Positions 7,029-21,622 of a DNA stretch of 64,000 nt are shown one piece after another. A program made the translations under genes and the position numbers. The first letter of the stretch is position 1. The number at the start of each line of letters is the position of its first letter. Source of the DNA: Segetibacter aerophilus (GTDB lineage Bacteria; Bacteroidota; Bacteroidia; Chitinophagales; Chitinophagaceae); NCBI RefSeq assembly GCF_007991655.1, contig NZ_BJYT01000016.1, positions 32,889 through 96,888 of the forward strand, given 5' to 3'. A model generated the notes under the pieces. The model was not told the DNA's origin, ran no database searches, and saw nothing but the letters and a program-made list of their open reading frames with translations.

Positions 7029-7034
7029 AAAAAA

Positions 7035-8252: not shown

Positions 8253-8279
8253 CAGTTTCAAATCCTACTAATTTGGTTT

Positions 8280-8311
8280 GCTCTAACGTTGTTGTTAGGG
8301 CTTTTTAGTTT
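8280..8311 (+). terminator. Rho-independent terminator after the integrase gene
   Basis: GCTCTAAC pairs with GTTAGGGC (one G-T pair, 6-base loop) and is followed by TTTTTAGTTT. Confidence 0.8.
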
Positions 8312-8606
8312 ATTCCCCTTTTAGTTATTACAAATAAGAAATTTATGCATAACTGAGCATATTGTAAAGACACGTTAAAACAGGTCAAAATTGTAATGTT
8401 AGTGGGACGTTTCAACCGTTTTTAAAAGAGATATTTTAGTTTTTGCCGAGAACAGGAATGGCATGTATTTGTGTTTCTTCCTGACAAGCCAAGCTTTAAG
8501 GCCGTAAGATTGACCCTTAAAGCAATCTAACCATTCAATTCGGCAACTTTTTTGTTTTATTCTGGCTTTAGCATCTTCTGGCTACTATTTATAACTAAAT
8601 GAGAAT
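8312..8606. other. Intergenic region between integrase and regulator genes
   Basis: No reading frame worth reporting. It is AT-rich and should hold the promoter of the regulator gene that follows. I see no repeat shared with the cassette sites. Confidence 0.4.
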
Positions 8607-8915
8607 ATGCGAAAAAAGAACGAGCAAGTAGCTCCACCTACAGCAAACGAGCTGCAAGCAGCAGCAACACAGCTATCTAACCCTACTTCATTAACGCTAC
8701 TCAGTTACTTGTACAAATCAGGTTTTGGATTACAAAGCAGCATTATCAAAGCAACAGCGTTTAGCCAATCAACAGTAAGCAAGCAACTAAAGGCGTTATT
8801 GACTGCAGGGTTGGTGTCAAAGGAAAAGTTCCGAACATGTAATATCTACAGCTTGAATCGGCCGCAATTTGTACGGTTCGGATTAGCCATTGACGTATGG
8901 TTAAAAGAAAATTAG
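8607..8915 (+). CDS. Small ArsR/MarR-type winged-helix transcription regulator
   Basis: A 102-residue protein with one winged helix-turn-helix domain: LTLLSYLYKSG, then a recognition helix in FSQSTVSKQLKALLTAGLV, then a wing (SKEKFRTCNIYSLN). There are no metal-binding cysteines in the ArsR pattern, so the signal is unknown. Palindromes just downstream (8923-8941, 9019-9046) are candidate operators, which suggests control of the following small operon (inference). The start ATG is the first in frame. Confidence 0.75.
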   Translation: MRKKNEQVAPPTANELQAAATQLSNPTSLTLLSYLYKSGFGLQSSIIKATAFSQSTVSKQLKALLTAGLVSKEKFRTCNIYSLNRPQFVRFGLAIDVWLKEN

Positions 8916-8922
8916 GTGAAGG

Positions 8923-8941
8923 ACTTACTCTGTTAGTAAGT
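8923..8941. promoter_or_regulatory. Inverted repeat ACTTACT-N5-AGTAAGT
   Basis: A 7-bp perfect inverted repeat with a 5-base centre, 8 bases after the regulator gene. It could be a binding site or a weak terminator, but no T run of useful length follows. Confidence 0.4.
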
Positions 8942-9018
8942 TTAATTTGTTAGTTATTTATTTTTATTCTAATACTCATAGCCTTTATTTATTGCTAAGT
9001 ACATTTAAAAAGGACTGA

Positions 9019-9046
9019 TTTAGTCACTAAAAATTTAGTAACTAAA
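9019..9046. promoter_or_regulatory. Tandem palindromes TTTAGTnACTAAA: candidate operator
   Basis: TTTAGTCACTAAA (9019-9031) and TTTAGTAACTAAA (9034-9046) are two near-identical 13-bp palindromes with centres 15 bases apart. This is a typical layout for a dimeric repressor binding cooperatively. The nearest regulator is the winged-helix protein encoded at 8607-8915. Confidence 0.6.
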
Positions 9047-9123
9047 TTATAAATAAATATAATGTATAAATTCTTGAAAAACAATTTTTTCTTCTTGATT
9101 TGCTGCCACATTTTTGCCAAGCC

Positions 9124-9150
9124 AAGAGTGGGGGCGCCCTCACTTTTAGC
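9124..9150. other. GC-rich inverted repeat
   Basis: AGTGGGGGC and GCCCTCACT form a compact inverted repeat in otherwise AT-rich DNA, followed by TTTTAG. It may be a weak terminator for the regulator transcript. Confidence 0.35.
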
Positions 9151-9226
9151 TTTAAAGCAAGTTACCTATTATGAGGTGAACGCTACTTAGCAGCTCTAAG
9201 AGGTAAATCAACAAAATTTAAGCGTA

Positions 9227-9254
9227 GAGATGTAATAAGCATCTCAATTTTTTT
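9227..9254 (+). terminator. Terminator or attenuator ahead of the 9298 gene
   Basis: GAGATG pairs with CATCTC (7-base loop), followed by AATTTTTTT. It lies 44 bases before the next start codon, so it either ends upstream transcription or attenuates the operon. Confidence 0.55.
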
Positions 9255-9277
9255 AAACCTAAAAAAAGGTAGGGGGA

Positions 9278-9301
9278 ATGCCTTTGCCTAAAAAAATATG
9301 A
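9278..9301 (+). CDS. Possible 7-residue leader peptide
   Basis: ATG CCT TTG CCT AAA AAA ATA TGA would encode MPLPKKI. It has a G-rich purine stretch (AGGTAGGGGG) just upstream. Its stop overlaps the ATG of the next gene in an ATGA arrangement, which would couple translation. This is speculative because the frame is very short. Confidence 0.25.
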   Translation: MPLPKKI

Positions 9302-9666
9302 AGAACATTAAGAATTTTAATAAGATGAGTAATAATAGTGAGAAGTTAGAAATTACAGTGTTTACCGACTGGTTATATTTTCAACCTCAACACTTGAGCA
9401 ACTTGATTGATGTGCTTGAGTTTGTTGAGTGTACTGTGTTGTATTATCATATCAAAAGGGGCAAGCAGGAAATTTATTTATGCATCGAGGAAAAGATGGA
9501 ACTGAACATTAGAGAGGATATAAAAACGAATATTAAAAAGATGAACGATGATGAAACGAAAAAACAGGTGGTTATCGTAAAAGTAAGAGGTATTGACCTG
9601 GAAGGTCATAAAGTTCAAACGGTTACTGTCAAGGAATATGCAGTTGAAATAATGGATGCAGAGTAA
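9298..9666 (+). CDS. Unknown small protein, first gene of an element operon
   Basis: A 122-residue soluble protein with no family I recognise. The N-terminus may instead start at the ATG at 9325 (MSNNSEKLEITVFT). The middle alternates hydrophobic and charged residues (VLYYHIKRGKQEIYLCIEEK) like a small alpha/beta domain. It overlaps the next gene by 11 bases, so the two are probably co-transcribed. Confidence 0.55.
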   Translation: MKNIKNFNKMSNNSEKLEITVFTDWLYFQPQHLSNLIDVLEFVECTVLYYHIKRGKQEIYLCIEEKMELNIREDIKTNIKKMNDDETKKQVVIVKVRGIDLEGHKVQTVTVKEYAVEIMDAE

Positions 9667-10441
9667 TTTAAAAATTCAAGAAATGAAAAAGGTAAAGGAA
9701 GATACAACAGGTAAGATGATACATGTACGCTTAGCTGATTTGAATAGACTAATTGGGGTATCCGACAAAAATGGTATTAAGGTGTTGATGTACTTCGTTG
9801 ACAACTACAATGCAATGATATTAATACCTGAAGAAATGTACATCAATGTGCTCAGAGATGTTACCGAAAGGAAGCTGGCAGCTTGCTTAAAATATAATGG
9901 TTTCAATGGCGCTGAGACCATTGAGTTTCTGGTGAGATTCGATGAAGAGAGAAAAGAGGAAATTCTACACGCACAGAGTTATCTGGTAACGTTGGATGAT
10001 ACCGTGGATACTGGAGTTAAGAATGAAGAGTTGGTTGAACCGATTGAAGTACCAGAGCATACAGACCCGCAAAAAGGCGATGGAGTTATACCAGTACCAG
10101 TGGATGTACTCGTAGACATGCAGAACGGGTTACAGTACGCTGTGGAGTTGTTGTTGACCATTGGTGAAGAGTTTTACAACAACAACTATGATGGCTTCCA
10201 ATATTTAATTACGATACAGAAAAAGGTTAGGCTATTTCAAGACTTTCACATGGGTAAAGGGAAAAAGGACTGTGGAGTTTCCAACGAAGAAGAAGTGGTG
10301 GATAAGTTCAAAGACAAGATTTTCACGTCTAAAGGTGACATAAATCTGCGAACGGTAAAACAGATAGCTTTTGCAGCTGGATGGATAGACCAGACGTACA
10401 TAGGGGTGATACATCTAATCTATATGTTAACGGTGAAATGA
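9656..10441 (+). CDS. Unknown acidic protein, second gene of the operon
   Basis: A 261-residue soluble protein, not recognised. The first half has a compact domain (about 20-100, MIHVRLADLNRLIGVSDKNG); a low-complexity acidic and proline-containing linker follows (about 120-150, VEPIEVPEHTDPQKGDG). The C-terminus is helical. It starts inside the previous gene (an alternative ATG at 9683 removes that overlap) and its stop overlaps the next ATG as ATGA. Confidence 0.55.
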   Translation: MQSNLKIQEMKKVKEDTTGKMIHVRLADLNRLIGVSDKNGIKVLMYFVDNYNAMILIPEEMYINVLRDVTERKLAACLKYNGFNGAETIEFLVRFDEERKEEILHAQSYLVTLDDTVDTGVKNEELVEPIEVPEHTDPQKGDGVIPVPVDVLVDMQNGLQYAVELLLTIGEEFYNNNYDGFQYLITIQKKVRLFQDFHMGKGKKDCGVSNEEEVVDKFKDKIFTSKGDINLRTVKQIAFAAGWIDQTYIGVIHLIYMLTVK

Positions 10442-10572
10442 TCGACCATTACGGTGGTAATGCTGCTGAAGAAGTTGCTTCAGTATATAAGTTCTGTTTA
10501 TACCTAAAAAATAAAGAAGAGTACGCAGTACTGAAAAGGGCAGATATTCGACAGTATCACTATTCAGCCTGA
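10438..10572 (+). CDS. Small unknown protein coupled by an ATGA overlap
   Basis: A 44-residue frame, MIDHYGGNAAEEVASVYKFC onward, ending RQYHYSA. Its ATG overlaps the previous stop codon by one base (ATGA), the usual sign of translational coupling; a longer start at 10381 would overlap deeply and is less likely. Function unknown. Confidence 0.45.
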   Translation: MIDHYGGNAAEEVASVYKFCLYLKNKEEYAVLKRADIRQYHYSA

Positions 10573-10596
10573 CATTATTAATTGAAAAAGATATTG

Positions 10597-10677
10597 ATGA
10601 AACAAAAGAGTAAGCATTCAGAGCAAACACGTAACATATTTTTAGAACTAAGACGGGCAATTGAAGATGAGCTTTAA
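10597..10677 (+). CDS. Very short frame, possible 26-residue peptide or gene remnant
   Basis: Encodes MKQKSKHSEQTRNIFLELRR onward, ending AIEDEL. The charged helical composition looks protein-like. It ends 17 bases before the first cassette gene. It may be the 5' stub of an element gene cut by arrival of the cassette array; no continuation was found. Confidence 0.3.
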   Translation: MKQKSKHSEQTRNIFLELRRAIEDEL

Positions 10678-10693
10678 GGTGCATCTTCTAAGC

Positions 10694-11161
10694 ATGAGAA
10701 GACTTTTAATACTTATACTGCTTGTACCAACACTTACCTTATCACAAAAAGTGACGACGACAGAGTTTGGTGGAGCTAATAACATTTATAATGATGGGAT
10801 AAAACGTTACTTAATTCTATCGGTACAGAATAAAAAACACAACCAAGACACGTTCTATGTTCAGCAGGACAACGTTATTACTGATAGCTTAATGACGAGA
10901 ATTTATGGTAGTAAGGTGGTGGTTGCTGATAGCAGCGTTATTGAAGAGAAGCTTAGGCAAAATGGCTCTTTTATGCTACACAAGTTGTTTCCACTGAGCT
11001 TTGATAAAGGTGTGTTTTACGTTAGCCTTGTGCTCTTTAGTGTAACAAAGACAAATGGTGAAGTTTACTTTGCAAATACAGCGACTTTCAAACTGGAATA
11101 CCTATTCTATACCAGAATGAAAGCGTTTCAATTTACCAAAGGTAGAAGCTACGGTCACTAA
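10694..11161 (+). CDS. Cassette 1: secreted protein of unknown function
   Basis: 155 residues with a signal peptide (MRRLLILILLVPTLTLSQ). I chose the ATG at 10694 because it places the signal peptide at the N-terminus; earlier starts at 10661 (TTG) and 10667 add a polar leader. The mature part is rich in beta-type segments and is not recognised. The stop lies 6 bases before an attC-type R'' box. The 5' boundary of this first cassette is unclear: no base run complementary to its R'' box was found upstream. Confidence 0.65.
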   Translation: MRRLLILILLVPTLTLSQKVTTTEFGGANNIYNDGIKRYLILSVQNKKHNQDTFYVQQDNVITDSLMTRIYGSKVVVADSSVIEEKLRQNGSFMLHKLFPLSFDKGVFYVSLVLFSVTKTNGEVYFANTATFKLEYLFYTRMKAFQFTKGRSYGH

Positions 11162-11167
11162 AGCAGC

Positions 11168-11300
11168 GTACAACAAAGGCTTATGTTCAAGTTGGGCTGA
11201 AGGACGTATATTAACCATTGAAACAATAATTAACGGCAGTGGTGGTTTGAAGCGTTAGCTTTCCAAATAACCAACCTGCGCAAAGCCATCCACGTTGGCT
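11168..11300 (+). repeat. attC-like site 1 (family B)
   Basis: R'' box GTACAAC (11168-11174) and R' box GTTGGCT (11294-11300), 133 bases. Inner arms are GGCTTATGTTCAAGTTGG and, on the other side, CCAACCTGCGCAAAGCC, which pair with an extra unpaired base, as attC arms do. Confidence 0.75.
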
Positions 11301-11308
11301 GCAAAATT

Positions 11309-11974
11309 GTGAGACACTTTCTATCCATATTGGCAATATTTTTCACTGCTTCTTGTTTAACAGCAACCGACAAGACAATTCAAGGAAACACAAGATTTGA
11401 CACGTTGCCTTTGCCTGCTGATAGTGCGACATTCTACTTCAAAATAAAAACTAACTGGCAAGACACAACACGAGATGCACTTGACACATTTGTCAATACA
11501 TGGTATTCTAAGATGTTATTTGCACTAAAAGAGCCAGTTTTAAAAGATTATAAAGCTGGCAAAGAAGTTTATCGTTTCACCTGGCTGCGCACTTTTAATC
11601 ATCCTGTTGTTATTAGACTTGAAAAGCAAGGAGACATTGTTCGACTGTTCAGCAAAGTAAGTGATGGTGCTGGCGGTTACGAGCCAGGAAAGATTATTTT
11701 TGACACGACCGTTAATTTAACTTCAAAGCAGATTGACACCATTAATTCCAGGCTTGATACTGCAAAGTTTTGGTTGCTTCAAACAGAAGCAAATAATAAC
11801 AATGGTAACGATGGCTCAGAATGGATCATTGAAGTCTACAAAGACAAACATTATCACATGGCAGTTCGTTGGACACCAGACAAGGGAACAGCCTTTAGAA
11901 GTATTGGGGAATATCTGCTTTCTATTTTGCAAATTAAAAATGAAATGACAGGTAGAGACCAAGGGGACTATTAA
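11309..11974 (+). CDS. Cassette 2: lipoprotein of unknown function
   Basis: 221 residues from a GTG start nine bases after the R' box. The lipobox is FTASC near residue 16. The mature protein carries WYSKMLFALKEPVL and a WIIEVYKDKHYHMAVRWTP segment. It resembles uncharacterised Bacteroidota lipoproteins, but I assign no function. It is one of a series of single-gene, same-strand units. Confidence 0.7.
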   Translation: MRHFLSILAIFFTASCLTATDKTIQGNTRFDTLPLPADSATFYFKIKTNWQDTTRDALDTFVNTWYSKMLFALKEPVLKDYKAGKEVYRFTWLRTFNHPVVIRLEKQGDIVRLFSKVSDGAGGYEPGKIIFDTTVNLTSKQIDTINSRLDTAKFWLLQTEANNNNGNDGSEWIIEVYKDKHYHMAVRWTPDKGTAFRSIGEYLLSILQIKNEMTGRDQGDY

Positions 11975-11976
11975 TT

Positions 11977-12103
11977 GCCAAAATCAGCTTTATGGAAGCA
12001 GGGCAGAAGAATATAAATTCAACAAACTTTATTGAACAACATCAAGCAAGTGAAGCGACAGAACATTAATTCCCTGCCTTCATAAAGCTGAAAAATGTTA
12101 TAG
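11977..12103 (+). repeat. attC-like site 2 (family C)
   Basis: Degenerate R'' GCCAAAA (11977-11983) and R' GTTATAG (12097-12103). Arms CAGCTTTATGGAAGCAGGG and CCCTGCCTTCATAAAGCTG pair almost perfectly. This R'' closes only weakly with the start of its own cassette (GCCAA against TTGGC). Confidence 0.7.
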
Positions 12104-12120
12104 GCAATTTTTTTCAACAC

Positions 12121-12702
12121 ATGAACTTCACCAATCGTCGATACTTCCTTACGCAAACCTTCCAGATTAAAGGAAGCTCAATACTTGTTAACAGAAAGAC
12201 GCTGTTTGAAGAAGTTGAATTTGAGATTTTGTTTGAGCGGTTAGCAAGTAAGAAAAGAACAGAGGCAAAAACTAACAGTAATCTTTTCTTTACAGGAATT
12301 ATCTTCTTTATAATGAATATGTTTTTCTTATCAGGCTCTATAATTGAAATGGCAGGAATTTGTATTGTGGTTGCTTTGATTTTAATTATTACATCTTTCA
12401 TAGACAAAAAGAGAACGATAACAATTGCTGGCTATGACGGAAACAATATTGTACTATATTTTACAAAATCTAACAAAGGAGAAGTTTCAGGTTTTGTGGA
12501 CCAATTATTCAAAGCAGCCAACGACTTCCTGCTCAATAAGTATAAGAAGATAGATAAGGCTCTTCCTACTGAACCGCAACTTGACAACATTCAGTTTCTT
12601 AGGAACAGAGAAATTATTTCGGAAGAGGAGTACGAAGCTCTTAAAGACAGGTTATATGGACGTGATAATATTTCCAACATTGGATTTGGCAACAGTAATT
12701 AA
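12121..12702 (+). CDS. Cassette 3: membrane protein with a SHOCT-like C-terminus
   Basis: 193 residues. Two hydrophobic segments (FFTGIIFFIMNMFFLSG and GICIVVALILIITSF, about 60-95) form a hairpin in the membrane. The C-terminus, LDNIQFLRNREIISEEEYEA then LKDRLYG, resembles the short SHOCT domain found at the ends of many membrane proteins. Function unknown. The ATG is 17 bases after the R' box. Confidence 0.7.
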   Translation: MNFTNRRYFLTQTFQIKGSSILVNRKTLFEEVEFEILFERLASKKRTEAKTNSNLFFTGIIFFIMNMFFLSGSIIEMAGICIVVALILIITSFIDKKRTITIAGYDGNNIVLYFTKSNKGEVSGFVDQLFKAANDFLLNKYKKIDKALPTEPQLDNIQFLRNREIISEEEYEALKDRLYGRDNISNIGFGNSN

Positions 12703-12708
12703 AACTGC

Positions 12709-12903
12709 CTATAACAAGGGTATTGATGCAAGTGTGGCATGACGTTGTTACTTCAGCTATGTGCAACCATAAGCTGTAGTTCAAGCGTAACGATTAACAT
12801 TCAGCAATCGAACAAACAATGAACTTTTAACTATAAATTGAGCAGCGGTTATCAGCAGACGGAATGCTATTTACCCACCTGCACAAAGCCCTCTTCGTTG
12901 TAA
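12709..12903 (+). repeat. attC-like site 3 (family E, long)
   Basis: R'' CTATAAC (12709-12715; exact complement of this cassette's own R' start GTTATAG) and R' GTTGTAA (12897-12903), 195 bases. Arms AGGGTATTGATGCAAGTGTGG and CCCACCTGCACAAAGCCCT pair with mismatches. It is longer than the usual attC range and may contain an insertion. Confidence 0.7.
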
Positions 12904-12911
12904 GCAACTTT

Positions 12912-13253
12912 ATGACACCACACTTGGAAAACAAACTAAAGGCTGAAATAAGAAAACTTGTTTCAAATGCAAAAGCCATCTTGACTAACCAAATTGGTTT
13001 TCCATTAGGTGTAAGCAAAATGCACACACTAATCGTTTATATCAATCAGATTGAGCCGATAACAAACATTAATTTTTCTGTTGTTAACGAATACCTGTCG
13101 AAGATTGATGGATGTCCAATAGGTTCAGAAAGACTTCAATGGGAAAAGGAAGCACTTAAAAAGCAAGATAAAATTATTGACGAAGCTACTTATTACTATA
13201 AAGATAGAATAGTGGATACTTGCTTTCACATCATTAATCTTCTTAATAATTAA
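12912..13253 (+). CDS. Cassette 4: small soluble protein of unknown function
   Basis: 113 residues from the ATG 8 bases after the R' box; a longer frame from 12864 would begin inside the attC site and is rejected. There is no signal peptide. The sequence is mostly helical with a conserved-looking ERLQWEKEALKKQDKIIDE segment. No family recognised. Confidence 0.65.
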   Translation: MTPHLENKLKAEIRKLVSNAKAILTNQIGFPLGVSKMHTLIVYINQIEPITNINFSVVNEYLSKIDGCPIGSERLQWEKEALKKQDKIIDEATYYYKDRIVDTCFHIINLLNN

Positions 13254-13267
13254 AACGGAAAAGCTGC

Positions 13268-13398
13268 TTACAACATCAGCTTCTATGCAATAGTGGCTTA
13301 GGAACAGCGTTAAACAGAATATCTTTAATAAGCTTTAGAACAGTAGTTAAAATTAAAACATGAATACCACTACTGCATAAAGCTGAAAAACGTTGTGC
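13268..13398 (+). repeat. attC-like site 4 (family A)
   Basis: R'' TTACAAC (13268-13274; complement of the cassette's own start GTTGTAA) and R' GTTGTGC (13392-13398), 131 bases. Arms CAGCTTCTATGCAATAGTGG and CCACTACTGCATAAAGCTG pair with extrahelical bases. Confidence 0.85.
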
Positions 13399-13433
13399 GT
13401 CATGCTAAAGCGAAGAAAATTCCCCTAATCTTT

Positions 13434-13925
13434 ATGAAAGACAGGAAAGTTGATATTGACCAAATGATGATAGATGAATGGAGACAGCTTGGTTTCTATT
13501 ATGACTTTGACGACCGCCTTTCGGTAAATCAGTGGAGATTTTACGGAAGCAAACAAGGACTTTTAAACTTTGTAAAGCTGCTGGGCGATTATGTAAATAA
13601 CAAAAACAACGACCAGTTTTCAGAACATGAACACTACGGACCATATATGTATCTGAAAATTATTACACTGGAGAACCAATGTGTAATAAATGAAAATGCT
13701 ATTGGTGGGACAATTGAGGACTTGAAAAGACTAAGAAATCTACTTGCTGACAAAATCGAAAAAAGTTTACCTGGACAAACGTTTTCAATTGACAAAGACT
13801 TTGGAGAAGACAATACTGTCACCGCAAAATTCTTTGTTATGGCTAAAGACTTTGACCCAGTGACAATGGATGAATTAATAATGTCTGGTAGACAAAAAAT
13901 AGTAAACGAGCAAAACATAAAGTAA
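13434..13925 (+). CDS. Cassette 5: cytosolic protein, possibly immunity-like
   Basis: 163 residues from the ATG at 13434 (a GTG at 13395 inside the R' box would add 13 residues). There is no signal peptide. The segment WRFYGSKQGLLNFVKLLGDY followed by SEHEHYGPYMYLKI is reminiscent of small immunity-type proteins of polymorphic toxin systems (Imm32-like), but this is a weak resemblance from memory. No toxin gene is adjacent. Confidence 0.6.
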   Translation: MKDRKVDIDQMMIDEWRQLGFYYDFDDRLSVNQWRFYGSKQGLLNFVKLLGDYVNNKNNDQFSEHEHYGPYMYLKIITLENQCVINENAIGGTIEDLKRLRNLLADKIEKSLPGQTFSIDKDFGEDNTVTAKFFVMAKDFDPVTMDELIMSGRQKIVNEQNIK

Positions 13926-13955
13926 GAGCTTTTAGGTGCTGAAAGAAGCACGAAC

Positions 13956-14086
13956 GCACAACAGTGTGTTTATAAAATTGTGGCGGCACATTAAGCATTC
14001 AACTTTTTATCTCTATTTTGCTTGTGTGGTTATTGTAACTGACGTTTTTCAATTGCCACAACTTCATTAACACTTTAACGTTAGGC
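13956..14086 (+). repeat. attC-like site 5 (family D)
   Basis: R'' GCACAAC (13956-13962; complement of its cassette's start GTTGTGC) and R' GTTAGGC (14080-14086), 131 bases. Arms GTGTGTTTATAAAATTGTGGC and GCCACAACTTCATTAACAC pair imperfectly. Confidence 0.8.
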
Positions 14087-14127
14087 GCAAATATGGAAAA
14101 CTCTTCAATTAACATCTTATAGTCTGA

Positions 14128-14544
14128 ATGACAAGATTATTTTACTTCTTACTTATTTCTTTGTGCTGTGCGTGTAGTTCATCTACAAATTCAAATCAGG
14201 GTACAGCTCCTAAGCCTGAAACTATTTCAACAGACCATTCCATTCTTGGGGAAGAAAATGCAAGAAAGCAGTTAAATGATTGCCTAAAAGGAAAAGGTCA
14301 GCCCTTTACTTGGGACACCTTAATTAAAACTCCTGCAACTGCAATAGCCATTGCTGAACCAATATTATTTGATGTTTTTGGCAAAGAGCAGATACTCCAA
14401 GAGAAGCCTTATGAAATTTATCAGATGGAAGGATACTGGTACATTGCAGGAACGTTACCAAAGAGCTATAACAAAGGTGGAGCATTTGAAATAATTTTTA
14501 GCGCAAAAGATGGACGGATTATAAGGTTAACGCACTACAAATAA
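14128..14544 (+). CDS. Cassette 6: lipoprotein resembling NTF2-fold immunity proteins
   Basis: 138 residues with a lipobox (LCCAC) near residue 15. The C-terminal half, IAEPILFDVFGKEQI, then KPYEIYQMEGYWYIAGTLP, then GGAFEIIFSAKDGRI, fits the pattern of the NTF2-fold immunity (YbbC/YhhH-like) family. Such proteins usually protect against a toxin delivered by rivals or kin. Here it stands alone without a toxin, which suits an orphan-immunity role (inference). The ATG is 41 bases after the R' box. Confidence 0.7.
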   Translation: MTRLFYFLLISLCCACSSSTNSNQGTAPKPETISTDHSILGEENARKQLNDCLKGKGQPFTWDTLIKTPATAIAIAEPILFDVFGKEQILQEKPYEIYQMEGYWYIAGTLPKSYNKGGAFEIIFSAKDGRIIRLTHYK

Positions 14545-14553
14545 CAAACATGC

Positions 14554-14686
14554 GCCTAACAACAGCTTGTATGCAATAGTGGCTTTAGTAATAACCTTAA
14601 ACACAATATCTTTAATCAGCTTCAGCACAATGGTATACTTCATAACAATGACTACCACTACTGCATAAAGCTGAAAACCGTTAGGC
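14554..14686 (+). repeat. attC-like site 6 (family A)
   Basis: R'' GCCTAAC (14554-14560) and R' GTTAGGC (14680-14686), both fitting the RYYYAAC/GTTRRRY consensus; 133 bases. TGCGCCTAAC is the exact 10-base complement of its own cassette start. Arms CAGCTTGTATGCAATAGTGG and CCACTACTGCATAAAGCTG. Confidence 0.9.
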
Positions 14687-14695
14687 GCAATTCAT

Positions 14696-15088
14696 ATGAA
14701 TAAGTATTCTTCTATTAAATACCGTCCTTCAATTCTCCTAATTGTTTGCTGTCTTCTTTCTTCATGTAGGGGGTCCAAGACTAAAAGCCTCTCGTTCGAA
14801 GGGTGCCGAGCAACATATGTTGAGTACTTAGGCGGTAAAAAAGAATTGTATGCAGGTCACTTTATCACTAATGCGATGGAGTTAGAAGCTGCACAACGAA
14901 AGTTGGGTGATTGCCTTTGTGAGGAGTACTTGAAAACAAGAGACAGCACAATACGTAATAAAATTATCGAACTCTACAATGAAAAGGAAACGTACTTCAC
15001 TCCTTCTACTGAAATCACTACCAATAATTTTGATTCTATTATCAAGCATAGAAAAGAGGTTTTTGACACTACGATGTTGATTGACTAA
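14696..15088 (+). CDS. Cassette 7: lipoprotein of unknown function
   Basis: 130 residues with a lipobox (CLLSSC) near residue 23. The ATG lies 9 bases after the R' box. The mature part is helical (AMELEAAQRKLGDCLCEEYL). No family recognised. Confidence 0.65.
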   Translation: MNKYSSIKYRPSILLIVCCLLSSCRGSKTKSLSFEGCRATYVEYLGGKKELYAGHFITNAMELEAAQRKLGDCLCEEYLKTRDSTIRNKIIELYNEKETYFTPSTEITTNNFDSIIKHRKEVFDTTMLID

Positions 15089-15093
15089 CATGC

Positions 15094-15226
15094 GTCTAAC
15101 AACAGCTTCTATGCAATAGTGGCTTTAGTAATAATTTTAAACAGAATATCTTTAATTAGCTTTAGTAAGGTGGCAAACATTAGAACAACGAATACCACCA
15201 CTGCATAAAGCTGAAAAACGTTGGCT
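15094..15226 (+). repeat. attC-like site 7 (family A)
   Basis: R'' GTCTAAC (15094-15100; one mismatch to its own cassette start GTTAGGC) and R' GTTGGCT (15220-15226), 133 bases. R'' and R' do not match each other, because R' belongs to the next cassette. Arms as in site 6. Confidence 0.85.
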
Positions 15227-15273
15227 GCAACTTATGGAACCAGCCTTAAAATGCGTCTTACTGAAAAGACTTT

Positions 15274-15780
15274 ATGCGATTACCCATTCAACTTATTATC
15301 TGCTTTTGTACTGTGACAACATTTGTTTCGTGTTCACCTAAAGCTGAGAATACTGAAGATGAACTAAGTAGACAGAATAACACTTTTGACACCTCGAAAA
15401 TTGCACTGATCTCCTTCAAGCAGACTTCGAATTGGCCTTTTCCTAATGAATACATACCTACAACTCTAAATGCGCTGGAAATTATTCAGCTGGATAGCCT
15501 AATCAATTCATGCGCCCTAAGCTACAACAGTAGGCTGTCAGAGGACAATAGGGATGCTTATGGAATAAATTTTAGCAAACGTCATTACAAAAGACAGTAT
15601 GTGCCAGTTCTCAATTCAAAAGGCGAAAAAGAGGTGTGGGCAAACTTCTTCTGCAAAGAATGGGAGAATTGGAAACAAGAAATTGTCTTTATAAAAGATG
15701 GTGGAAACTGTTTTTTTGAACTCAAAATTAACTTGACCACCAAGGCCTGTTCTGCGGTACATGTGAATGGTTATGCTTGA
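15274..15780 (+). CDS. Cassette 8: lipoprotein of unknown function
   Basis: 168 residues with a lipobox (TFVSC) near residue 20 followed by a charged linker. The mature domain includes YKRQYVPVLNSKGEKEVWAN and FCKEWENWKQEIVFIKDGG, a pattern I associate with uncharacterised Bacteroidota lipoproteins. No function assigned. The start is 47 bases after the R' box. Confidence 0.65.
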   Translation: MRLPIQLIICFCTVTTFVSCSPKAENTEDELSRQNNTFDTSKIALISFKQTSNWPFPNEYIPTTLNALEIIQLDSLINSCALSYNSRLSEDNRDAYGINFSKRHYKRQYVPVLNSKGEKEVWANFFCKEWENWKQEIVFIKDGGNCFFELKINLTTKACSAVHVNGYA

Positions 15781-15788
15781 CACGCTGC

Positions 15789-15923
15789 AACCAACATAGG
15801 CTTCATGCAATACAGGCAAAAGAATAAATTCTCAACAAAAGAATTACTATTTTGCTTCAGAAAGCGTATGAGGCAACAGAACATAAATTTCCTGTACTGC
15901 ATGAAGCCATTTCAACGTTAGCT
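15789..15923 (+). repeat. attC-like site 8 (family C)
   Basis: R'' AACCAAC (15789-15795; one mismatch to the complement of its cassette start GTTGGCT) and R' GTTAGCT (15917-15923), 135 bases. Arms GGCTTCATGCAATACAGG and CCTGTACTGCATGAAGCC pair nearly perfectly. Confidence 0.85.
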
Positions 15924-15963
15924 GATATGTTAGGAGAGAGGTGGTAAGCCCGAAAACTATTTG

Positions 15964-16563
15964 ATGAAGGAAAAATTTACTGTCTTTTTTATGGTTGTCC
16001 TTATTGTAGGTATAGCCGTCTACTTTAGTTATACAAATGGATGGTACGAGTTTCGGAGAAACACTGATACTCCTAAAGAATTTTTAAACCCGACAAGTAC
16101 AAGTAAAGAAAATTATAGTAGAGACAGCATAGAGATAAACAATCAGGTTAAAACGCTGATAGCAAGACACAAAGATTTTTTTTATAGTAAAGAGTACTTT
16201 GAAGGAACTAACATACTTATTGACACCATCGTTTATAGCCCCCGTTTAGACAAATTAGCCGTTTTAGTAATCACAAAAAATCCAGCATCACGACAGTTGC
16301 AGCCAGCCAAGGACAAGCATTATTATTATAACGGGACAAGTTACTTAGGTGTTAGAAAAGGCGATACAATAAGTCTAAGTTGGCTTGGCCCCGTTTTTAC
16401 TAATTCAATGGACAAAAGTGAATTATCTAATGAGCTAAGAGAGGCTTGCTTCAGAACTTTTGTTTCTAAAGACACCACTAAAGAATATTCTTATAAGTAC
16501 AATCTTAACGACATACGGTTTTGGACAAGCAGCGTATGGCGGTTAATTGATGAAACAAATTAA
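15964..16563 (+). CDS. Cassette 9: single-span membrane-anchored protein
   Basis: 199 residues from the ATG at 15964 (a TTG one codon earlier is possible). The N-terminal hydrophobic segment KFTVFFMVVLIVGIAVYFSY would anchor an outward-facing domain. The rest (KLAVLVITKNPASRQ, HYYYNGTSYLGVRKGDTISL) looks like a beta-rich domain of unknown role. Confidence 0.65.
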   Translation: MKEKFTVFFMVVLIVGIAVYFSYTNGWYEFRRNTDTPKEFLNPTSTSKENYSRDSIEINNQVKTLIARHKDFFYSKEYFEGTNILIDTIVYSPRLDKLAVLVITKNPASRQLQPAKDKHYYYNGTSYLGVRKGDTISLSWLGPVFTNSMDKSELSNELREACFRTFVSKDTTKEYSYKYNLNDIRFWTSSVWRLIDETN

Positions 16564-16638
16564 AACAGAAGAATCAAAAGACGACAAAGTGAAATTCCCT
16601 GAAAATGGTTTACGAACCCATTTTATAGAAAACACATC

Positions 16639-16770
16639 AGCTAACAACAGCTTTATGCAATAGTGGCTTTAGGAATACTTTAAACAGAATATCTTTAATG
16701 AGCTTTAGAAAGTAGTCAGACGGTGAAGCGAATGAACACCACTACTGCATAAAGCTGAAAACCGTGACTT
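16639..16770 (+). repeat. attC-like site 9 (family A)
   Basis: R'' AGCTAAC (16639-16645), with ATCAGCTAAC the exact complement of its cassette start, and R' GTGACTT (16764-16770), 132 bases. R' has GTG where GTT is expected, which may impair recombination at this site. Confidence 0.8.
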
Positions 16771-16779
16771 GCAAGCACA

Positions 16780-17349
16780 ATGACAACTCGGTACTTAATT
16801 ATCTTCTTCTTACTTGTAGCTTCTTGTAATTCTGGTAGGGACACAAATTCTTTAGGTAAACCCACATCTTTTGAAGCACCAGAGCTTTCTGTTGCCTGTT
16901 CGAAAGTCATCAAGACATTACGTAATGAATTTCATGGAGTTGCGATTATAAGCACTGCTGGTAACATCGAGAAAGACAGCCTTATATCACACCTTAATCG
17001 CCTTAAGTCGTATGGCGTGGTAGAGAACAGCGGGTTTGAGACATTCGTCAAGAGATGTAATAATTTGAGGTTTGTTACTTGGAAGTCAAATAACCGTGAA
17101 CAGATTATAACACGGATAGAGAAAGTAACTTACAAAACTGATGTAAGTGGAAATACAATTAAAGTAACAGACTTTGACGTTTATTCTACTAACAAACCAA
17201 ATCATTTTGCATTGAGAATAATCAACGACTACCAATTTGAATATTTAATACTGGACCATGAGAAATACACAAGAGTATCAGAAAGTGTTTTAGTAGGAGT
17301 TGATGAAGCAATGGCGGGCTTAGATGCGACCAGGAATGCCTGCAAGTAA
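16780..17349 (+). CDS. Cassette 10: lipoprotein of unknown function
   Basis: 189 residues with a lipobox (LVASC) near residue 16. The ATG is 9 bases after the R' box. The mature part is an alpha/beta domain (FHGVAIISTAGNIEKDSLIS, YEYLILDHEKY-like end). Not recognised. Its stop codon lies inside the R'' box of the following attC site. Confidence 0.65.
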   Translation: MTTRYLIIFFLLVASCNSGRDTNSLGKPTSFEAPELSVACSKVIKTLRNEFHGVAIISTAGNIEKDSLISHLNRLKSYGVVENSGFETFVKRCNNLRFVTWKSNNREQIITRIEKVTYKTDVSGNTIKVTDFDVYSTNKPNHFALRIINDYQFEYLILDHEKYTRVSESVLVGVDEAMAGLDATRNACK

Positions 17350-17410
17350 CAATAGCTTATATGCAATAGTGGCTTTAGGGCCTGCCTTCATAAAGGTGTA
17401 AACGTTGTGC
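17344..17410 (+). repeat. attC-like site 10 (short, apparent A/C hybrid)
   Basis: R'' AAGTAAC (17344-17350) and R' GTTGTGC (17404-17410), only 67 bases. The left half (AGCTTATATGCAATAGTGGC) is of family A, the right half (CCTGCCTTCATAAAGGTG) of family C. It looks like a fusion of two site types with loss of the loop. Confidence 0.7.
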
Positions 17411-17440
17411 GTCATTTTACAGGGACTCCAATTTCAAAGA

Positions 17441-17902
17441 ATGGTAAGACTCAAATTAACTTTTTTATTTTTCATCGGATTGCTTTTTAGTAACTGTTGG
17501 GAACAACTGTGGGGCGACAATGACCTGGGTGATAATTTCTCATTACTGGAAGGCGATAGAACTGAAGACAGGATAATAGTATACTGTAGTGGACGAAGTG
17601 CTGGTGCTTGTATGGCTGGTACCCCTATCGTACCTGTTTACTCAAGGCACATGGACAGCGAAGGACAGTATGCGGAATATGTAGAAACCGCTAACTCAAA
17701 TGACAATTTTATTATTGCCAAGACTGTACAGCTAAAGGACAAAAGAACAAACTATTGGATTATCACAAAAGGTTACGGTATTGACAATTGCGACAAGATA
17801 AACTGTGACAGTATTATTCAATCTCATGTCCTTGGACCTCTGGACCAAAACCAGTTTCAAAAAGAGGCTTCCAAACTTAAAATAAATTTAAGGTTTCAAT
17901 AA
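17441..17902 (+). CDS. Cassette 11: probable lipoprotein of unknown function
   Basis: 153 residues from the ATG at 17441, with a hydrophobic N-terminus and a possible lipobox (LLFSNC). The middle has IIVYCSGRSAGACMAGTPIV, with several cysteines in the exported part. No family recognised. A TTG start at 17405 would begin in the R' box and is less likely. Confidence 0.6.
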   Translation: MVRLKLTFLFFIGLLFSNCWEQLWGDNDLGDNFSLLEGDRTEDRIIVYCSGRSAGACMAGTPIVPVYSRHMDSEGQYAEYVETANSNDNFIIAKTVQLKDKRTNYWIITKGYGIDNCDKINCDSIIQSHVLGPLDQNQFQKEASKLKINLRFQ

Positions 17903-17921
17903 CTGCGTGACAAAAACGAAC

Positions 17922-17992
17922 GCACAACAGCAGCTTCTATGCAATAGTGGCTTGAGGAATAACTCTAAACAAAAAGCTAAAAAACGTTAGCC
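17922..17992 (+). repeat. attC-like site 11 (family A, right arm deleted)
   Basis: R'' GCACAAC (17922-17928; complement of its cassette start) and R' GTTAGCC (17986-17992), 71 bases. The left arm CAGCTTCTATGCAATAGTGG is present but the matching CCACTACTGCAT is missing, leaving only a short AGCT pairing. Confidence 0.7.
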
Positions 17993-17999
17993 GCAACTG

Positions 18000-18398
18000 A
18001 TGAAGCAGATAATCATTACAACTCTTTTCTTAATAATCGGACTTGCTGCATTCAGTCAGAAAGACTCCGTTCGTGGAAAGCAATTTCACCTAAAAGGCAA
18101 GTTAACAGAGACGGTTCAGATTACACCATCTTGTGGTTATATCGCTTTTGGAACCGTTGTAGAATTTGAAGTGAAAGACCTTTTAGGCATGCGGTACAAA
18201 AATAAAAACATAGGAATTATTGTTACCTGTCCAGACATGTATAAAGAGGGATTTTTTAAAAAAGGGAAAATGTATGAGGTATCGTTTTCCGACACCAATC
18301 CAGCAGACTTCGGGTGGACTGTTGGGAATAGAAATCTGCTGAAAAAGAATGGTCTTGCTTTTGACCCCTATGTAGTATCCCTGAAAAGAATACAGTGA
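18000..18398 (+). CDS. Cassette 12: secreted protein of unknown function
   Basis: 132 residues with a signal peptide (cleavage after AAFSQ). The ATG is 7 bases after the R' box. The mature domain (GYIAFGTVVEFEVKDLLGMR, KKGKMYEVSFSDTNP) looks beta-rich. Not recognised. It is the last unit whose R'' box (TGCGGCTAAC) closes exactly with its own start. Confidence 0.65.
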   Translation: MKQIIITTLFLIIGLAAFSQKDSVRGKQFHLKGKLTETVQITPSCGYIAFGTVVEFEVKDLLGMRYKNKNIGIIVTCPDMYKEGFFKKGKMYEVSFSDTNPADFGWTVGNRNLLKKNGLAFDPYVVSLKRIQ

Positions 18399-18401
18399 TG
18401 C

Positions 18402-18490
18402 GGCTAACAAAGGCTTCTGTGCAAGTCGGGCTGAAGGAAGTATATTTAAACTGTAAAACAATCATTAACGGTATTGGTGGTGTGAGGTTC
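18402..18490 (+). repeat. attC-like site 12, left half only (family B)
   Basis: R'' GGCTAAC (18402-18408), then DNA alignable with site 1 (AAAGGCTTCTGTGCAAGT, CTGAAGGAAGTATAT, ATTAACGG, TTGGTGGT). The similarity stops near 18490 and no right arm or R' follows, so the array appears broken here. Confidence 0.65.
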
Positions 18491-19060
18491 GGGCGTACTG
18501 TACAACTTTACCATCCACAGCTCCCCTAAGCCCGCTTAGCCCCTTCAAATGACATGTTTAACCTTGGTGATGCTGGGAAGTTATAACCGTATTTTCTTTG
18601 GATGTTGAGCGACATGTTGAGCACGCCAGAGTCTTGCCTAATCCTGCACCTTCCCCAGCTTTAAAACTGTACAATCCACAATCTCCACCAGACCAATAGA
18701 CAGAAGGAAGCAGAACAGTTATTCGAATAGCTGTGAGGAGCGTCTGGCTGGCCCTTTGGTTGACTCTGGTCACGGTATCATCTTCAACCTTTACAAGTCA
18801 TGCAAGCCTTTATGGCCCTTGATCTAAATGGTGAACTGAGCTTAATCTTGGGTATTACCAACGGTAACCTGATGTCTCTGGCTGCTTCCCGTAGAACAGG
18901 TCCAGTACCAGCAGCGAGCTGAAATGGTAGCAAATCTCCAATGTTTGGTAAATGATCATTGGTAAATGAGTAATAACTTCAGTAGTCCAGTGGAGAAAGT
19001 AATATGTGCTTTACCTGAAAGGTTATCTTCACTTCAAACGTTAATGAGTAACAGCAAGCT
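18491..19060. other. Gene-free stretch after the cassette array
   Basis: About 570 bases without a supportable gene; short frames on both strands lack any family pattern. A direct repeat TTGGTAAATGA occurs at 18945 and 18959. GTTAATG at 19040-19046 could be a worn R' box, since the next gene ends in TATTAAC, but the evidence is weak. Confidence 0.4.
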
Positions 19061-19657
19061 ATGATCAAACAACTGAAGTTTACCTGTATCACTTCTACAG
19101 TTCTAATATTAGCTTTTATTGTGACACGTGCTAATGCTTGCTCATGCTTGGGGAAAGAAAAGCAAACGCTTTCGGTCACAGGCGATAGACAAGTTGATAC
19201 TTATTCAATTGATAGTTTATTCAAGAGAGTTCCTGAGCTTACTATCGAAACTACACTGCCTGATAGTGTTTTTTCCAGTTATTTCAAAATAATTAGGCTT
19301 GAGCAAAGTGACGGAATTACGCTACGTGCAGACTCCACTTTTGAAAGTGTTATTAGAAGTTCTTTTTCTAAAAGCGGTAAATGGCGAATTGACAAGAGAG
19401 AGAAGCAGATCGTTTTCAATTCTAACCAAAAGAAACAAGAACGGTTTTATGTTGTTAAGTACTGGGGTTGGCTTTACTTAGTTCGTCCGCAGGAAATAAG
19501 AGATTTTGTTAATCGCTTTAACGTTAGTAGAAAAAAACATAAAAACGCAAAACCCTTTGAACTGGAAACAGGGGGCAAGCTATACACATGGGAGTTCTTG
19601 GTAGCTTCTGATTTAGCTAATAAAACTTACGTCATGAATTGGTCGGATGATTATTAA
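19061..19657 (+). CDS. Secreted protein of unknown function
   Basis: 198 residues with a signal peptide (cleavage near TRANA, followed by CSC). The mature part has FKIIRLEQSDGITLRADSTF and a KQERFYVVKYWGWLYLVRPQ segment. It resembles the cassette products in being exported and unassigned. A worn attC-like context is possible but not shown. Confidence 0.6.
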   Translation: MIKQLKFTCITSTVLILAFIVTRANACSCLGKEKQTLSVTGDRQVDTYSIDSLFKRVPELTIETTLPDSVFSSYFKIIRLEQSDGITLRADSTFESVIRSSFSKSGKWRIDKREKQIVFNSNQKKQERFYVVKYWGWLYLVRPQEIRDFVNRFNVSRKKHKNAKPFELETGGKLYTWEFLVASDLANKTYVMNWSDDY

Positions 19658-20093
19658 CAACACCCAACCCAAACCTACCGTTGACGTAGCTAAAATAAAT
19701 ATTTATACTTTGACGGCATCTGTGGTTCCCAATATAAAGAAAGCTTGGAATAGCCTTTACAGCTCTTTCAATCATGCTATCTCGTGCTGCAACGACAACT
19801 ACCAGCAAACCACGGAACCTGTCCTCACCAAAGCCCATCAAAATGCGAAGCTAACCTTATCAAACGAGCAGGGTTATCCTGCAATTTTCATACGGCCCGT
19901 ATCGTTATAGAAGTGCACAAGTTTCAAGGTTCGACTGGACAGGAAAGTTGCATACAGCATCAGTCGTTGTGATTCGACCTTTGACCGATTATATTTAAAC
20001 AGTAAATATACACCAACAGTATCCATTCATCGAATACGCAACATTCAGTAAGCGGAAACCGTCGTCAGTCATACTAAACTGACACCTCACCAT
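19658..20093. other. Gene-free stretch
   Basis: An 87-residue frame (19647-19910) overlaps the end of the previous gene and shows no domain or signal, so it is not called. Nothing else was seen. Confidence 0.35.
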
Positions 20094-20803
20094 ATGAAAA
20101 ACTTAACGCTAACTGCTTTTTTTTTCTTACATGTCTCGCTGGACAATCGCAGACAAAGAATTTTCTTGACCAGCCTTATTTAGAGGTTACTGGAAGTGCA
20201 GACACATTGGTAACACCGAATGAAATCTTAATCAAAATTTTCATTTCGGAGAAAGATAGGAAGGACAAAACATCAGTTGAACAATTAGAAATAAAAATGT
20301 TCAACACCCTTAAGACATTAGGTATAGACGTTGAAAACAACTTAACGACAAGCGACATGTCGAGCAATTTCAAATTCTACTTTTTAAAAAGTAAGGATGT
20401 AATTAAGACAAAACAGTATCTTTTAAAAGTAGGTGATGCTGTGACAGCCAGCAAAGTGTTCATCCAACTCGAAGATTTAGGCATTTCAAATACATCTATT
20501 GACCATGTTGACCACTCGGAATTGGAGAACATAAGAAATATTATCCGAACTAAAGCGGTGGCTAATGCAAGAACAAGAGCATTGGCCTTAATAAAACCAT
20601 TAAATCAGAATATCGGACCCGCTATTCATATTGCTGACAATGAAGCATACAATGTAAACCAACAGCTTCAAGGACGAGTAGCAGGAGTTGTTGTGACAGG
20701 ATATTCGATAAGAGGAAAAGCTTCTGATGAATTACCAAAAATTGAGTTTGAAAAGATTAACGTCACTACGAACATCAATGTGAAGTTCATTCTTAAACCA
20801 TAA
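20094..20803 (+). pseudogene. SIMPL/DUF541-type secreted protein with a frameshift in a run of nine T
   Basis: The ATG at 20094 opens a signal peptide (MKNLTLTAFFF) that runs into nine T (20117-20125). In the +1-shifted reading the peptide continues as LTCLAGQSQTKNFLDQPYLE, then VTGSADTLVTPNEILIKIFI, a good SIMPL/DUF541 start, to the stop at 20803. One extra T, or two fewer, restores a normal 236-residue or similar secreted protein. It could be slippage-controlled, a true pseudogene or a base-calling error. The C-terminal half has ARTRALALIKPLNQNIG, usual for the family. Confidence 0.75.
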
Positions 20804-20814
20804 GCACCAATGCA

Positions 20815-20875
20815 CAGCATGCCGCTTTGTAGAAATTGGACGGAAGGCAGCATATTCAACAGTAAAAAGAGCCAA
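20815..20875 (+). repeat. Worn attC-like left half (family B)
   Basis: GGACGGAAGGCAGCATATTC and AACAGTAAAA align with the corresponding part of site 12 (GGCTGAAGGAAGTATATTT, ACTGTAAAA). There is no clear R'' or R' box, so it is probably inactive. Confidence 0.45.
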
Positions 20876-20920
20876 TTGTTATTTTACCTTCCACAATAGA
20901 AATTACTAATAAACAATTAT

Positions 20921-21445: not shown

Positions 21446-21454
21446 TTATCTTTC

Positions 21455-21578
21455 AATATCATTTTGCAGTGTTTCTATTGTAAATAGTAAAGCTTTCAAA
21501 AGATGATTTGCTTTTGTGGTCAATTGAACTCGACGTTTTTTTAATTGCCACCACTTCATAGACTCTGTAACGTTGTCA
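21455..21578 (+). repeat. Worn attC-like site 13 (family D)
   Basis: The right half (GCTTTTGTGGTCAATTGAAC, GACGTTTTTTTAATTGCCAC, ACTTCATAGACTCTGTAAC, then R' GTTGTCA at 21572-21578) aligns well with site 5. The left half keeps CAGTGTTTCTATTGT but no R'' box ending in AAC was found. Confidence 0.55.
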
Positions 21579-21622
21579 CAGACGTGTTTGCCAAACAACT
21601 GGTTATAGGAAAAAAAATCTTG

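What the first reader, a model, noticed from the sequence alone, without database searches (positions are those of the whole stretch)
10694..18490. Integron-like cassette array without an integron integrase, inside a tRNA-integrated Bacteroidota element
Twelve one-gene units on the same strand are separated by attC-like imperfect inverted repeats with R''/R' boxes. In units 3 to 12, ten in a row, the first 9-10 bases of the unit are complementary to the R'' box at its own end: five runs exact over 9-10 bases (units 3, 6, 9, 12 and, over nine, 5 and 11), the rest with at most one mismatch or one base shorter. This is what recombination of circular cassettes at G|TT predicts and what ordinary intergenic repeats do not. 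Integron cassette arrays are well known in Proteobacteria but little described in Bacteroidota (established knowledge, from memory). No IntI was seen.
Basis: partly seen in the sequence, partly recalled or inferred. Interest (0 to 1): 0.95.

Follow-up and report, generated by a model that had tools for sequence, protein, structure and literature searches.

The report
Bacteroidota integron cassettes, integrase lacking I2
Ten of twelve small gene units here carry the end-to-end sequence match left by gene cassettes that were once circles, and in related bacteria the same kind of array lies behind a recombinase gene that lacks the segment (I2) thought essential for integron integrases, so this is likely a stranded piece of a widespread, overlooked type of integron.

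Summary
The first ten bases of units 3-12 are complementary to their own R'' box (9-10 of 10; 0 of 200,000 permutations), and a covariance model built only from other organisms' sites finds exactly the window's 11 complete sites. The genome has 30 model matches but neither a canonical integron integrase (IntI) nor the enzyme described next. Main result: in many Bacteroidota these arrays start behind a tyrosine recombinase that keeps the catalytic residues but lacks the IntI-specific I2 insert (14-17 residues where 12 IntI have 56). For 39 recombinase loci taken in score order, 66 of 66 attC sites lie downstream on the same strand. In 22 of 31 loci the first cassette's head lies under 700 nt from the recombinase, at an attI-like point. 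In 296 Bacteroidota genomes these sites go with this recombinase (66 of 93 against 44 of 203), not with canonical IntI. The window's array is likely a stranded (CALIN-like) cluster of an I2-less integron class. Eight literature searches found no description. Recombination is untested.

The parts
6759..30230 (.). tRNA-Leu-integrated element bounded by a 58-nt direct repeat (6759-6816 / 30173-30230)
   Evidence: 98% repeat; tRNA-Leu 30175-30259
7035..8252 (+). 405-aa tyrosine recombinase of the element; not IntI and not the new integrase family
   Evidence: TIGR02249 38.9 bits, cut-off 265; A7 37.9 bits
10694..11161 (+). unit 1 ORF (no head match found upstream)
11165..11303 (+). attC-like site 1
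   Evidence: E 8.3e-14
11309..11974 (+). unit 2 ORF (head and tail do not match)
11973..12106 (+). attC-like site 2 (R'' altered)
   Evidence: E 3.7e-9
12121..12702 (+). unit 3 ORF; weak SHOCT / bPH_7 hits below cut-off
12706..12906 (+). attC-like site 3 (long form, about 200 nt)
   Evidence: E 1.5e-4
12864..13253 (+). unit 4 ORF as listed mechanically; starts inside site 3, so a start after 12906 is more likely
13265..13401 (+). attC-like site 4
   Evidence: E 9.1e-17
13395..13925 (+). unit 5 ORF
13953..14089 (+). attC-like site 5
   Evidence: E 1.1e-14
14128..14544 (+). unit 6 ORF, NTF2-fold immunity protein (PF15631, 74.2 bits, cut-off 26)
14551..14689 (+). attC-like site 6
   Evidence: (E 1.6e-20)
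14696..15088 (+). unit 7 ORF, lipoprotein-like N-terminus (read by eye)
15091..15229 (+). attC-like site 7
   Evidence: E 2.5e-20
15274..15780 (+). unit 8 ORF
15786..15926 (+). attC-like site 8
   Evidence: E 2.7e-11
15961..16563 (+). unit 9 ORF
16636..16773 (+). attC-like site 9 (next core reads GTG, not GTT)
   Evidence: E 1.2e-15
16780..17349 (+). unit 10 ORF
17341..17413 (+). attC-like site 10, deletion form
   Evidence: E 0.04
17432..17902 (+). unit 11 ORF
17919..17995 (+). attC-like site 11, deletion form
   Evidence: E 0.0022
18000..18398 (+). unit 12 ORF
18399..18490 (+). 5' half of site 12; 3' half not found
   Evidence: R'' complementary to the head of unit 12 over 10 bases

Best explanation
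The window holds gene cassettes with attC-like ends whose own-end match is the mark of recombination between circular cassettes at G|TT; the array is likely a stranded cluster from an integron class that in related Bacteroidota starts behind an I2-less, IntI/XerA-related tyrosine recombinase. Shown: the own-end match at 6-7 of 7 bases in 131 of 146 cassettes tested (6 of the 146 from the window); the covarying arms; the recombinase at the start of arrays; an attI-like point between recombinase and first cassette in 22 of 31 loci; no match to this recombinase family or to canonical IntI above Xer level in the window's genome. Inferred: the recombinase inserts circular cassettes at attI by cutting between G and TT and excises them by attC x attC exchange; the folded bottom strand of attC is the likely substrate; the N-terminal domain found in 70 of 79 examined members, and in none of 28 IntI or Xer controls, may do the work of I2. 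In this genome the cassettes were likely inserted when such an enzyme was present, or arrived with the tRNA-Leu element, and would now be immobile unless an integrase is supplied from outside.
For: Own-end signature: window; 110 cassettes in 29 loci, 6 of them in the window, mean 6.41 of 7 bases against 3.40 inside one integrated site, 0 of 20,000 permutations, also when shuffled within loci; 36 more in 13 stretches of other Bacteroidota, mean 5.92, 0 of 20,000. Arms: 25 of 28 pairs with changes on both sides, 87.5% of cells paired, slid controls 28-42%. Position: 39 recombinase loci in score order, 66 of 66 sites downstream on the same strand (150 kb searched), 0 upstream (216 kb searched); all 61 loci, 130 downstream same strand and 6 upstream opposite strand, no other. 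attI-like point: head of the first detected cassette found between recombinase and attC at 9-10 of 10 in 29 of 31 loci, other tails reach 9 or 10 in 412 of 5,043; in 22 of the 29 it lies under 700 nt from the recombinase behind a shared motif, in the other 7 behind what reads as a missed attC. Co-occurrence: 84 of 94 against 60 of 150 in the family; 66 of 93 against 44 of 203 in the phylum, canonical IntI 24 of 86 against 86 of 210; 0 sites in 12 canonical IntI loci. No I2: 14-17 residues in 32 of 32 against 56 in 12 of 12 IntI; six catalytic residues in 32 of 32. Fold: best Foldseek hit is IntI4 2a3v.
Against: No recombination has been observed. The window has no attI-like start and no integrase, so its array cannot be tied to the enzyme directly. 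60 of 150 family genomes without a detected recombinase still have sites, and 10 of 94 with it have none detected. 64 of 80 named loci of the wider recombinase group gave no site, many Bacteroidota ones among them. Only 16 of 177 heads fit GTTRRRY, the consensus I recall for canonical integrons. The strand bias of the stem is net towards the bottom strand (237 of 300) but sits at fixed positions and is reversed in the outer stem, so it does not prove a single-stranded substrate. 9 of 79 members lack the N-terminal domain. Co-occurrence counts are not corrected for kinship.
Confidence: 0.82

Rival explanations
1. The array is an ordinary CALIN of canonical integrons: a canonical IntI, lost from this genome or acting from elsewhere, made it, and the I2-less recombinases beside arrays in relatives are unrelated neighbours.
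For: A decayed canonical intI (287 bits, internal stop) exists in one genus relative, G098; CALINs are common in bacteria (passages of PMC8618304 and PMC9668308).
Against: R2 sites go with the I2-less recombinase and not with canonical IntI (OR 8.8 against 0.56); 0 sites in 12 canonical IntI loci, which however carry only about 1.5 kb on each side; canonical IntI over cut-off in 1 of 244 family genomes while 144 of 244 have sites; 66 of 66 sites downstream of the recombinase.
Confidence: 0.1
2. The repeats are intergenic repeats or terminator-like hairpins spread by another route (for example a transposon or gene conversion), and the units are not cassettes.
For: Many sites are dispersed singly, e.g. 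among the 40 R2 matches of the closed genome G004.
Against: I know of no explanation for the own-head/own-tail match other than circular intermediates cut at G|TT; in the window the sites bound single ORFs in one orientation; first cassette heads start at an attI-like point in 22 of 31 loci.
Confidence: 0.03
3. The cassettes are moved by the host's XerC/XerD or by the element's own 405-aa recombinase.
For: These enzymes are present in the window's genome.
Against: XerC/XerD are near universal in bacteria (general knowledge) while the sites track the I2-less recombinase; the 405-aa recombinase has no close relative in the array stretches L060-L071 (best hit there 15.5 bits).
Confidence: 0.05

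Closest known systems
Integrons (canonical: intI, attI, attC cassette array), e.g. the Vibrio superintegron and class 1 integrons
   Same: One-gene cassettes in one orientation, attC-like imperfect inverted repeats with R and L arms, own-end complementarity, cut point G|TT, attI-like first insertion point, tyrosine recombinase at the array start.
   Different: Recombinase lacks the I2 insert and mostly has its own N-terminal domain; it is mostly co-directional with the array (divergent in 3 of 61 loci); core GTTRNNNG-like (G8 in 162 of 177 heads) rather than GTTRRRY; attI-like core near GCGTATATTTACG.
CALIN (cluster of attC sites lacking integrase)
   Same: The window's array: 11 complete sites, no integrase found in the genome.
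   Different: The sites belong to a class that the published attC model may not detect (untested), inside a tRNA-Leu element.
IntI4 / VchIntIA (PDB 2a3v) and archaeal XerA (4a8e, 5hxy)
   Same: Best fold and sequence matches of the new recombinase.
   Different: IntI4 has about 55 residues where the query has about 12; XerA acts on dif-like double-stranded sites and is not array-linked (recalled).
Integron of Salinibacter ruber M1 (Bacteroidetes), PMC9024848
   Same: An integron in Bacteroidetes.
   Different: Reported there as a complete integron by IntegronFinder (passage), so presumably with a canonical IntI; its sequence was not examined here.

Membership tests
Canonical integron | IntI with the additional I2 domain encoded by the element or genome | tested here: not met
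   Own genome 0 matches over the TIGR02249 cut-off; the recombinase beside arrays in relatives lacks the insert
Canonical integron | attC with R''/R' boxes, own-end complementarity, cut at G|TT | tested here: met
   (the cut point is inferred from the matches)
Canonical integron | Core consensus GTTRRRY (recalled) | tested here: not met
   16 of 177 heads
Canonical integron | attI next to the integrase gene | tested here: not met
   Not found in the window; in relatives an attI-like point under 700 nt from the recombinase in 22 of 31 loci
Canonical integron | Site-specific insertion and excision of circular cassettes | not testable with these tools
   needs an assay or junction reads
CALIN as defined by IntegronFinder | At least two attC detected by its covariance model, no integrase nearby | tested here: inconclusive
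   11 sites by our model and no integrase; IntegronFinder's own model was not available
IntI family TIGR02249 (for the recombinases of relatives) | Score over the curated 265 bits | tested here: not met
   157.4 and 230.8 bits for the two members scored
IntI clade by phylogeny | Groups with IntI apart from Xer recombinases | tested here: inconclusive
   Sister to IntI when only XerC/D are outgroup; nearer XerA-like proteins with more outgroups; one clade with IntI not rejected, p-AU 0.112
XerC / XerD / XerA (TIGR02224, TIGR02225, NF040815) | Score over curated cut-offs | tested here: not met
   178, 158.9, 194.5 bits against 335.15, 329.6, 220 for G223; 169.2, 166.1, 209.2 for G236
tRNA-integrated element | Integrase next to one end, direct repeat with a tRNA gene | tested here: met

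The most novel reading that the evidence does not exclude
A second integron system exists, spread through Bacteroidota, in which a Xer-like integrase without I2 captures and shuffles cassettes through folded single-stranded attC sites; I2, held to be the innovation that made integrons possible, is not required, and an N-terminal domain of the enzyme took its place, possibly by independent evolution.
Probability: 0.5. Interest if true: 0.97.

Novelty: new variant of a known kind. Interest (0 to 1): 0.92.

Why it matters
The literature I read states that the I2 domain is necessary for cassette capture and that integron integrases most parsimoniously arose by acquiring it (Introduction of PMC7790495, which cites Messier and Roy 2001 and MacDonald et al. 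2006, neither read here), and an early survey selected intI genes by that domain or patch (PMC2426708, passage). An array-forming integrase without I2 would explain why such arrays look integrase-less, would open a large pool of cassettes in Bacteroidota to study, and makes testable whether I2 is needed for single-strand attC recombination or is one of two solutions.

Tried and rejected
XerC/XerD or the element's own integrase as mover: not preferred. Phage records similar to 13395-15790: no match. Rfam at gathering thresholds: only tRNA and RNase P. Defence genes in 10 of the 12 units: one weak AbiEi hit in unit 10, E 0.0067; units 7 and 12 were not given to that call. Pfam: of the 12 units only unit 6 passes a cut-off. 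attI-like core in the window: none convincing. The N-terminal domain was not tested alone; the full model has mean pLDDT 82 but pTM 0.48, and the rows of pdb_via span mostly residues 109-380. A claim of uniform bottom-strand preference was dropped after the per-position count. A claim that the new family is the sister of IntI was dropped after the wider tree. On checking, the attI-like count was cut from 29 to 22 of 31, since in 7 loci the found head follows what reads as a missed attC end.

Counts with known bias: the 20 loci, the G104 locus, L069 and most of the stretches were picked partly because sites were already known nearby; the 39 loci (ranks 1-39) were not. Model R2 was trained on 52 sites that include 8 window sites and some sites later counted; R3 was not trained on the window. 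In scans over 40 genomes only 11-13 site candidates per genome were scored, so site counts there are lower bounds. Palindromic sites also score on the other strand; overlapping second hits were dropped before counting, but the counts were taken as printed. In one search, 37 of 214 sites without AAC/GTT boxes in place were left out. The line E <= 1e-58 was drawn after seeing the list. In tree 1 one of 12 Bacteroidota IntI loci (L202, very long frame) was left out; in tree 2, 17 near-duplicate rows were left out and one of 20 outgroup loci gave no row. 13 rows of the N-terminal profile come from the proteins it was then searched in.
Full report
1. The array. The window (G000, contig C16 of a 5.89 Mb, 79-contig genome) carries 12 single-ORF units on + at 10694-18398. 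Each is followed by an attC-like site; 11 are complete, the twelfth has lost its 3' half, sites 10 and 11 are deletion forms. The first ten bases of units 3-12 are complementary to the R'' box at their own end: 10 of 10 in units 3, 4, 6, 9, 12 and 9 of 10 in units 5, 7, 8, 10, 11. Unit 2 fails, and unit 1 has no head. Over bases 4-10 the sum is 67 for 11 units against a permuted mean of 37.9 and maximum 64 in 200,000 permutations; the R'' and R' that face each other inside one integrated site match far less. This is what circular cassettes cut between G and TT leave behind (established for integrons).

2. Independent detection. A covariance model from 6 window sites (R1) finds further sites in the same genome on contigs C2, C6, C41, C30 and C5. 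A broader model from 52 sites (R2) rests on strong covariation: 25 of 28 pairs have changes on both sides, 87.5% of 1,444 cells pair, slid controls pair 28-42%. A third model built only from 30 sites of other organisms (R3) returns exactly the 11 window sites.

3. No integrase here. Canonical IntI (TIGR02249): 0 over the cut-off in the own genome; the best hits are XerD and a XerC-like protein. The new family, searched with a 15-sequence profile, also gives only these two at its best (163.6 and 127.7 bits). A genus relative, G098, has a decayed canonical intI with an internal stop.

4. The recombinase of the class. A genus relative, G223, has a 330-aa open frame of a tyrosine recombinase directly upstream of an array; the N-terminal domain was not found in this frame, which may be truncated. 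Its homolog in G236 was used as query: 94 of 244 family genomes at E <= 1e-40; R2 sites in 144 of 244; both in 84, recombinase alone in 10, sites alone in 60, neither in 90. G236 itself has 106 R2 matches. With the G104 member as query, 6,595 proteins reach E <= 1e-50 among the 8,000 candidates scored; of the 120 listed, the names given are 'tyrosine-type recombinase/integrase', 'site-specific integrase' or 'XerD'; organisms named among them are Terrimonas alba, Flavisolibacter sp. (two entries) and 'Bacteroidota bacterium', so the family is likely Chitinophagaceae.

5. Position. For the 39 recombinase loci taken in score order, 66 sites were found and all 66 lie downstream on the same strand (150 kb searched); none upstream (216 kb searched). 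23 of 39 loci have a site; of the 16 without, 13 hold under 1.6 kb downstream because the contig ends. For all 61 loci: 130 downstream same strand, 6 upstream opposite strand in three loci (L127, L128, L133). For 20 stretches from 18 genomes of other Bacteroidota families: 61 sites, of which 45 downstream same strand, 3 upstream opposite strand, 13 in pieces without the recombinase. Of 80 named loci found with the family profile, many of them outside Bacteroidota, 16 gave sites and 64 none; with a Persicobacter plasmid added, 29 of 31 sites are downstream same strand and 2 upstream opposite strand.

6. attI-like point. In 31 loci with a first detected attC within reach, the head expected from that attC's R'' was sought between recombinase and attC: 22 match 10 of 10, 7 match 9, one 8, one 7. 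Tails of other loci reach 9 or 10 in 412 of 5,043 trials. In 22 of the 29 that match 9 or 10, the head lies 54-566 nt behind the recombinase frame, and the bases before it are biased towards GCGTATATTTACG (C at -13 in 21 of 22, A at -8 in 21 of 22, T at -7 in 19 of 22). In the other 7 (923-1958 nt; L122, L138, L141, L143, L153, L158, L160) the bases before the head read as an attC end that the model missed, so there the head is that of a later cassette.

7. Larger cassette test. 110 cassettes bounded by consecutive sites in 29 loci (6 in the window): own ends match 6.41 of 7 on average (101 of 110 at 6 or 7), facing ends within a site 3.40; 0 of 20,000 permutations, also within loci. 36 cassettes in 13 other stretches: 5.92 (30 of 36 at 6 or 7), 0 of 20,000. 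The model used to find the sites rewards pairing inside a site, which works against this contrast.

8. Which integrase goes with these sites. In 296 Bacteroidota genomes: new recombinase (E <= 1e-58) 93, R2 sites 110, canonical IntI 86 at 1e-45 (84 over cut-off). Sites occur in 66 of 93 genomes with the new recombinase and 44 of 203 without (OR 8.8), but in 24 of 86 with canonical IntI and 86 of 210 without (OR 0.56); among genomes without canonical IntI the OR is 6.6. The E <= 1e-58 line was drawn after seeing the list, to leave out XerC/D-level scores near 1e-50. 12 canonical IntI loci gave 0 sites. These counts are not corrected for kinship.

10. Strand. The L stem folds better on the bottom strand in 237 of 300 unequal sites (303 examined), and in 69 of 83 loci. 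But this comes from fixed positions: A.C on top (G.T on bottom) in the inner stem, and the reverse in the outer stem. It shows strand-polarised sites, as in integrons, and makes the bottom strand the likely substrate; it does not prove it.

11. Cassette content and exchange. Only unit 6 has a clear family (PF15631 immunity protein). Proteins like unit 6 (69% and 68%, twice on contig C38) and unit 9 (61%, contig C34) lie in arrays of G172; five units (1, 2, 6, 8, 9) had any match at E <= 1e-8 in the loci held.

12. Prior art. Searches of the held open-access library gave, in their listings, no report of an I2-less integron integrase or of this attC class; subscription papers and preprints are not held. 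Read: passages of PMC9024848, PMC8618304, PMC9668308, PMC4792948 and PMC2426708; Introduction and first part of Results of PMC7790495.

Noticed in passing
L058 (G098 contig C24:31071-31796): Decayed canonical intI with the I2 segment and an internal stop in a genus relative of the window; no R2 site in L058 or L060 around it.
   Followed up: partly
G004 (closed genome), e.g. C1:276569 to C1:4920995: 40 R2 matches, many dispersed over the chromosome rather than in one array, which could reflect insertion outside attI.
   Followed up: no
sites of about 200 nt, e.g. window 12706-12906, L105, L138, L069:8170-8374: A second length class of attC-like sites beside the 138-nt class, with a longer loop.
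   Followed up: no
phylum sample: Canonical IntI is over the cut-off in 84 of 296 Bacteroidota genomes, all but one outside the window's class; more than the literature passages suggest.
   Followed up: no
window 18490-30000: Rest of the tRNA-Leu element has small + strand genes (19061-22180, one with a SIMPL domain) without model-detected sites between them.
   Followed up: partly
G000 C2:99379-137131: Sites on C2 lie between further element-type integrase genes, so other arrays of this genome may also sit in mobile elements.
   Followed up: no
loci L106, L108, L120, L130 and others: The recombinase gene often lies within a few hundred bases of a contig end, as expected if repetitive arrays break the assembly.
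   Followed up: partly
window 32797-33162: RNase P RNA (class A) just outside the element.
   Followed up: no
L127, L128, L133, L223: In four loci the array is divergent from the recombinase, the layout of canonical integrons; L128 and L223 also lack the N-terminal domain and group together in the tree.
   Followed up: partly
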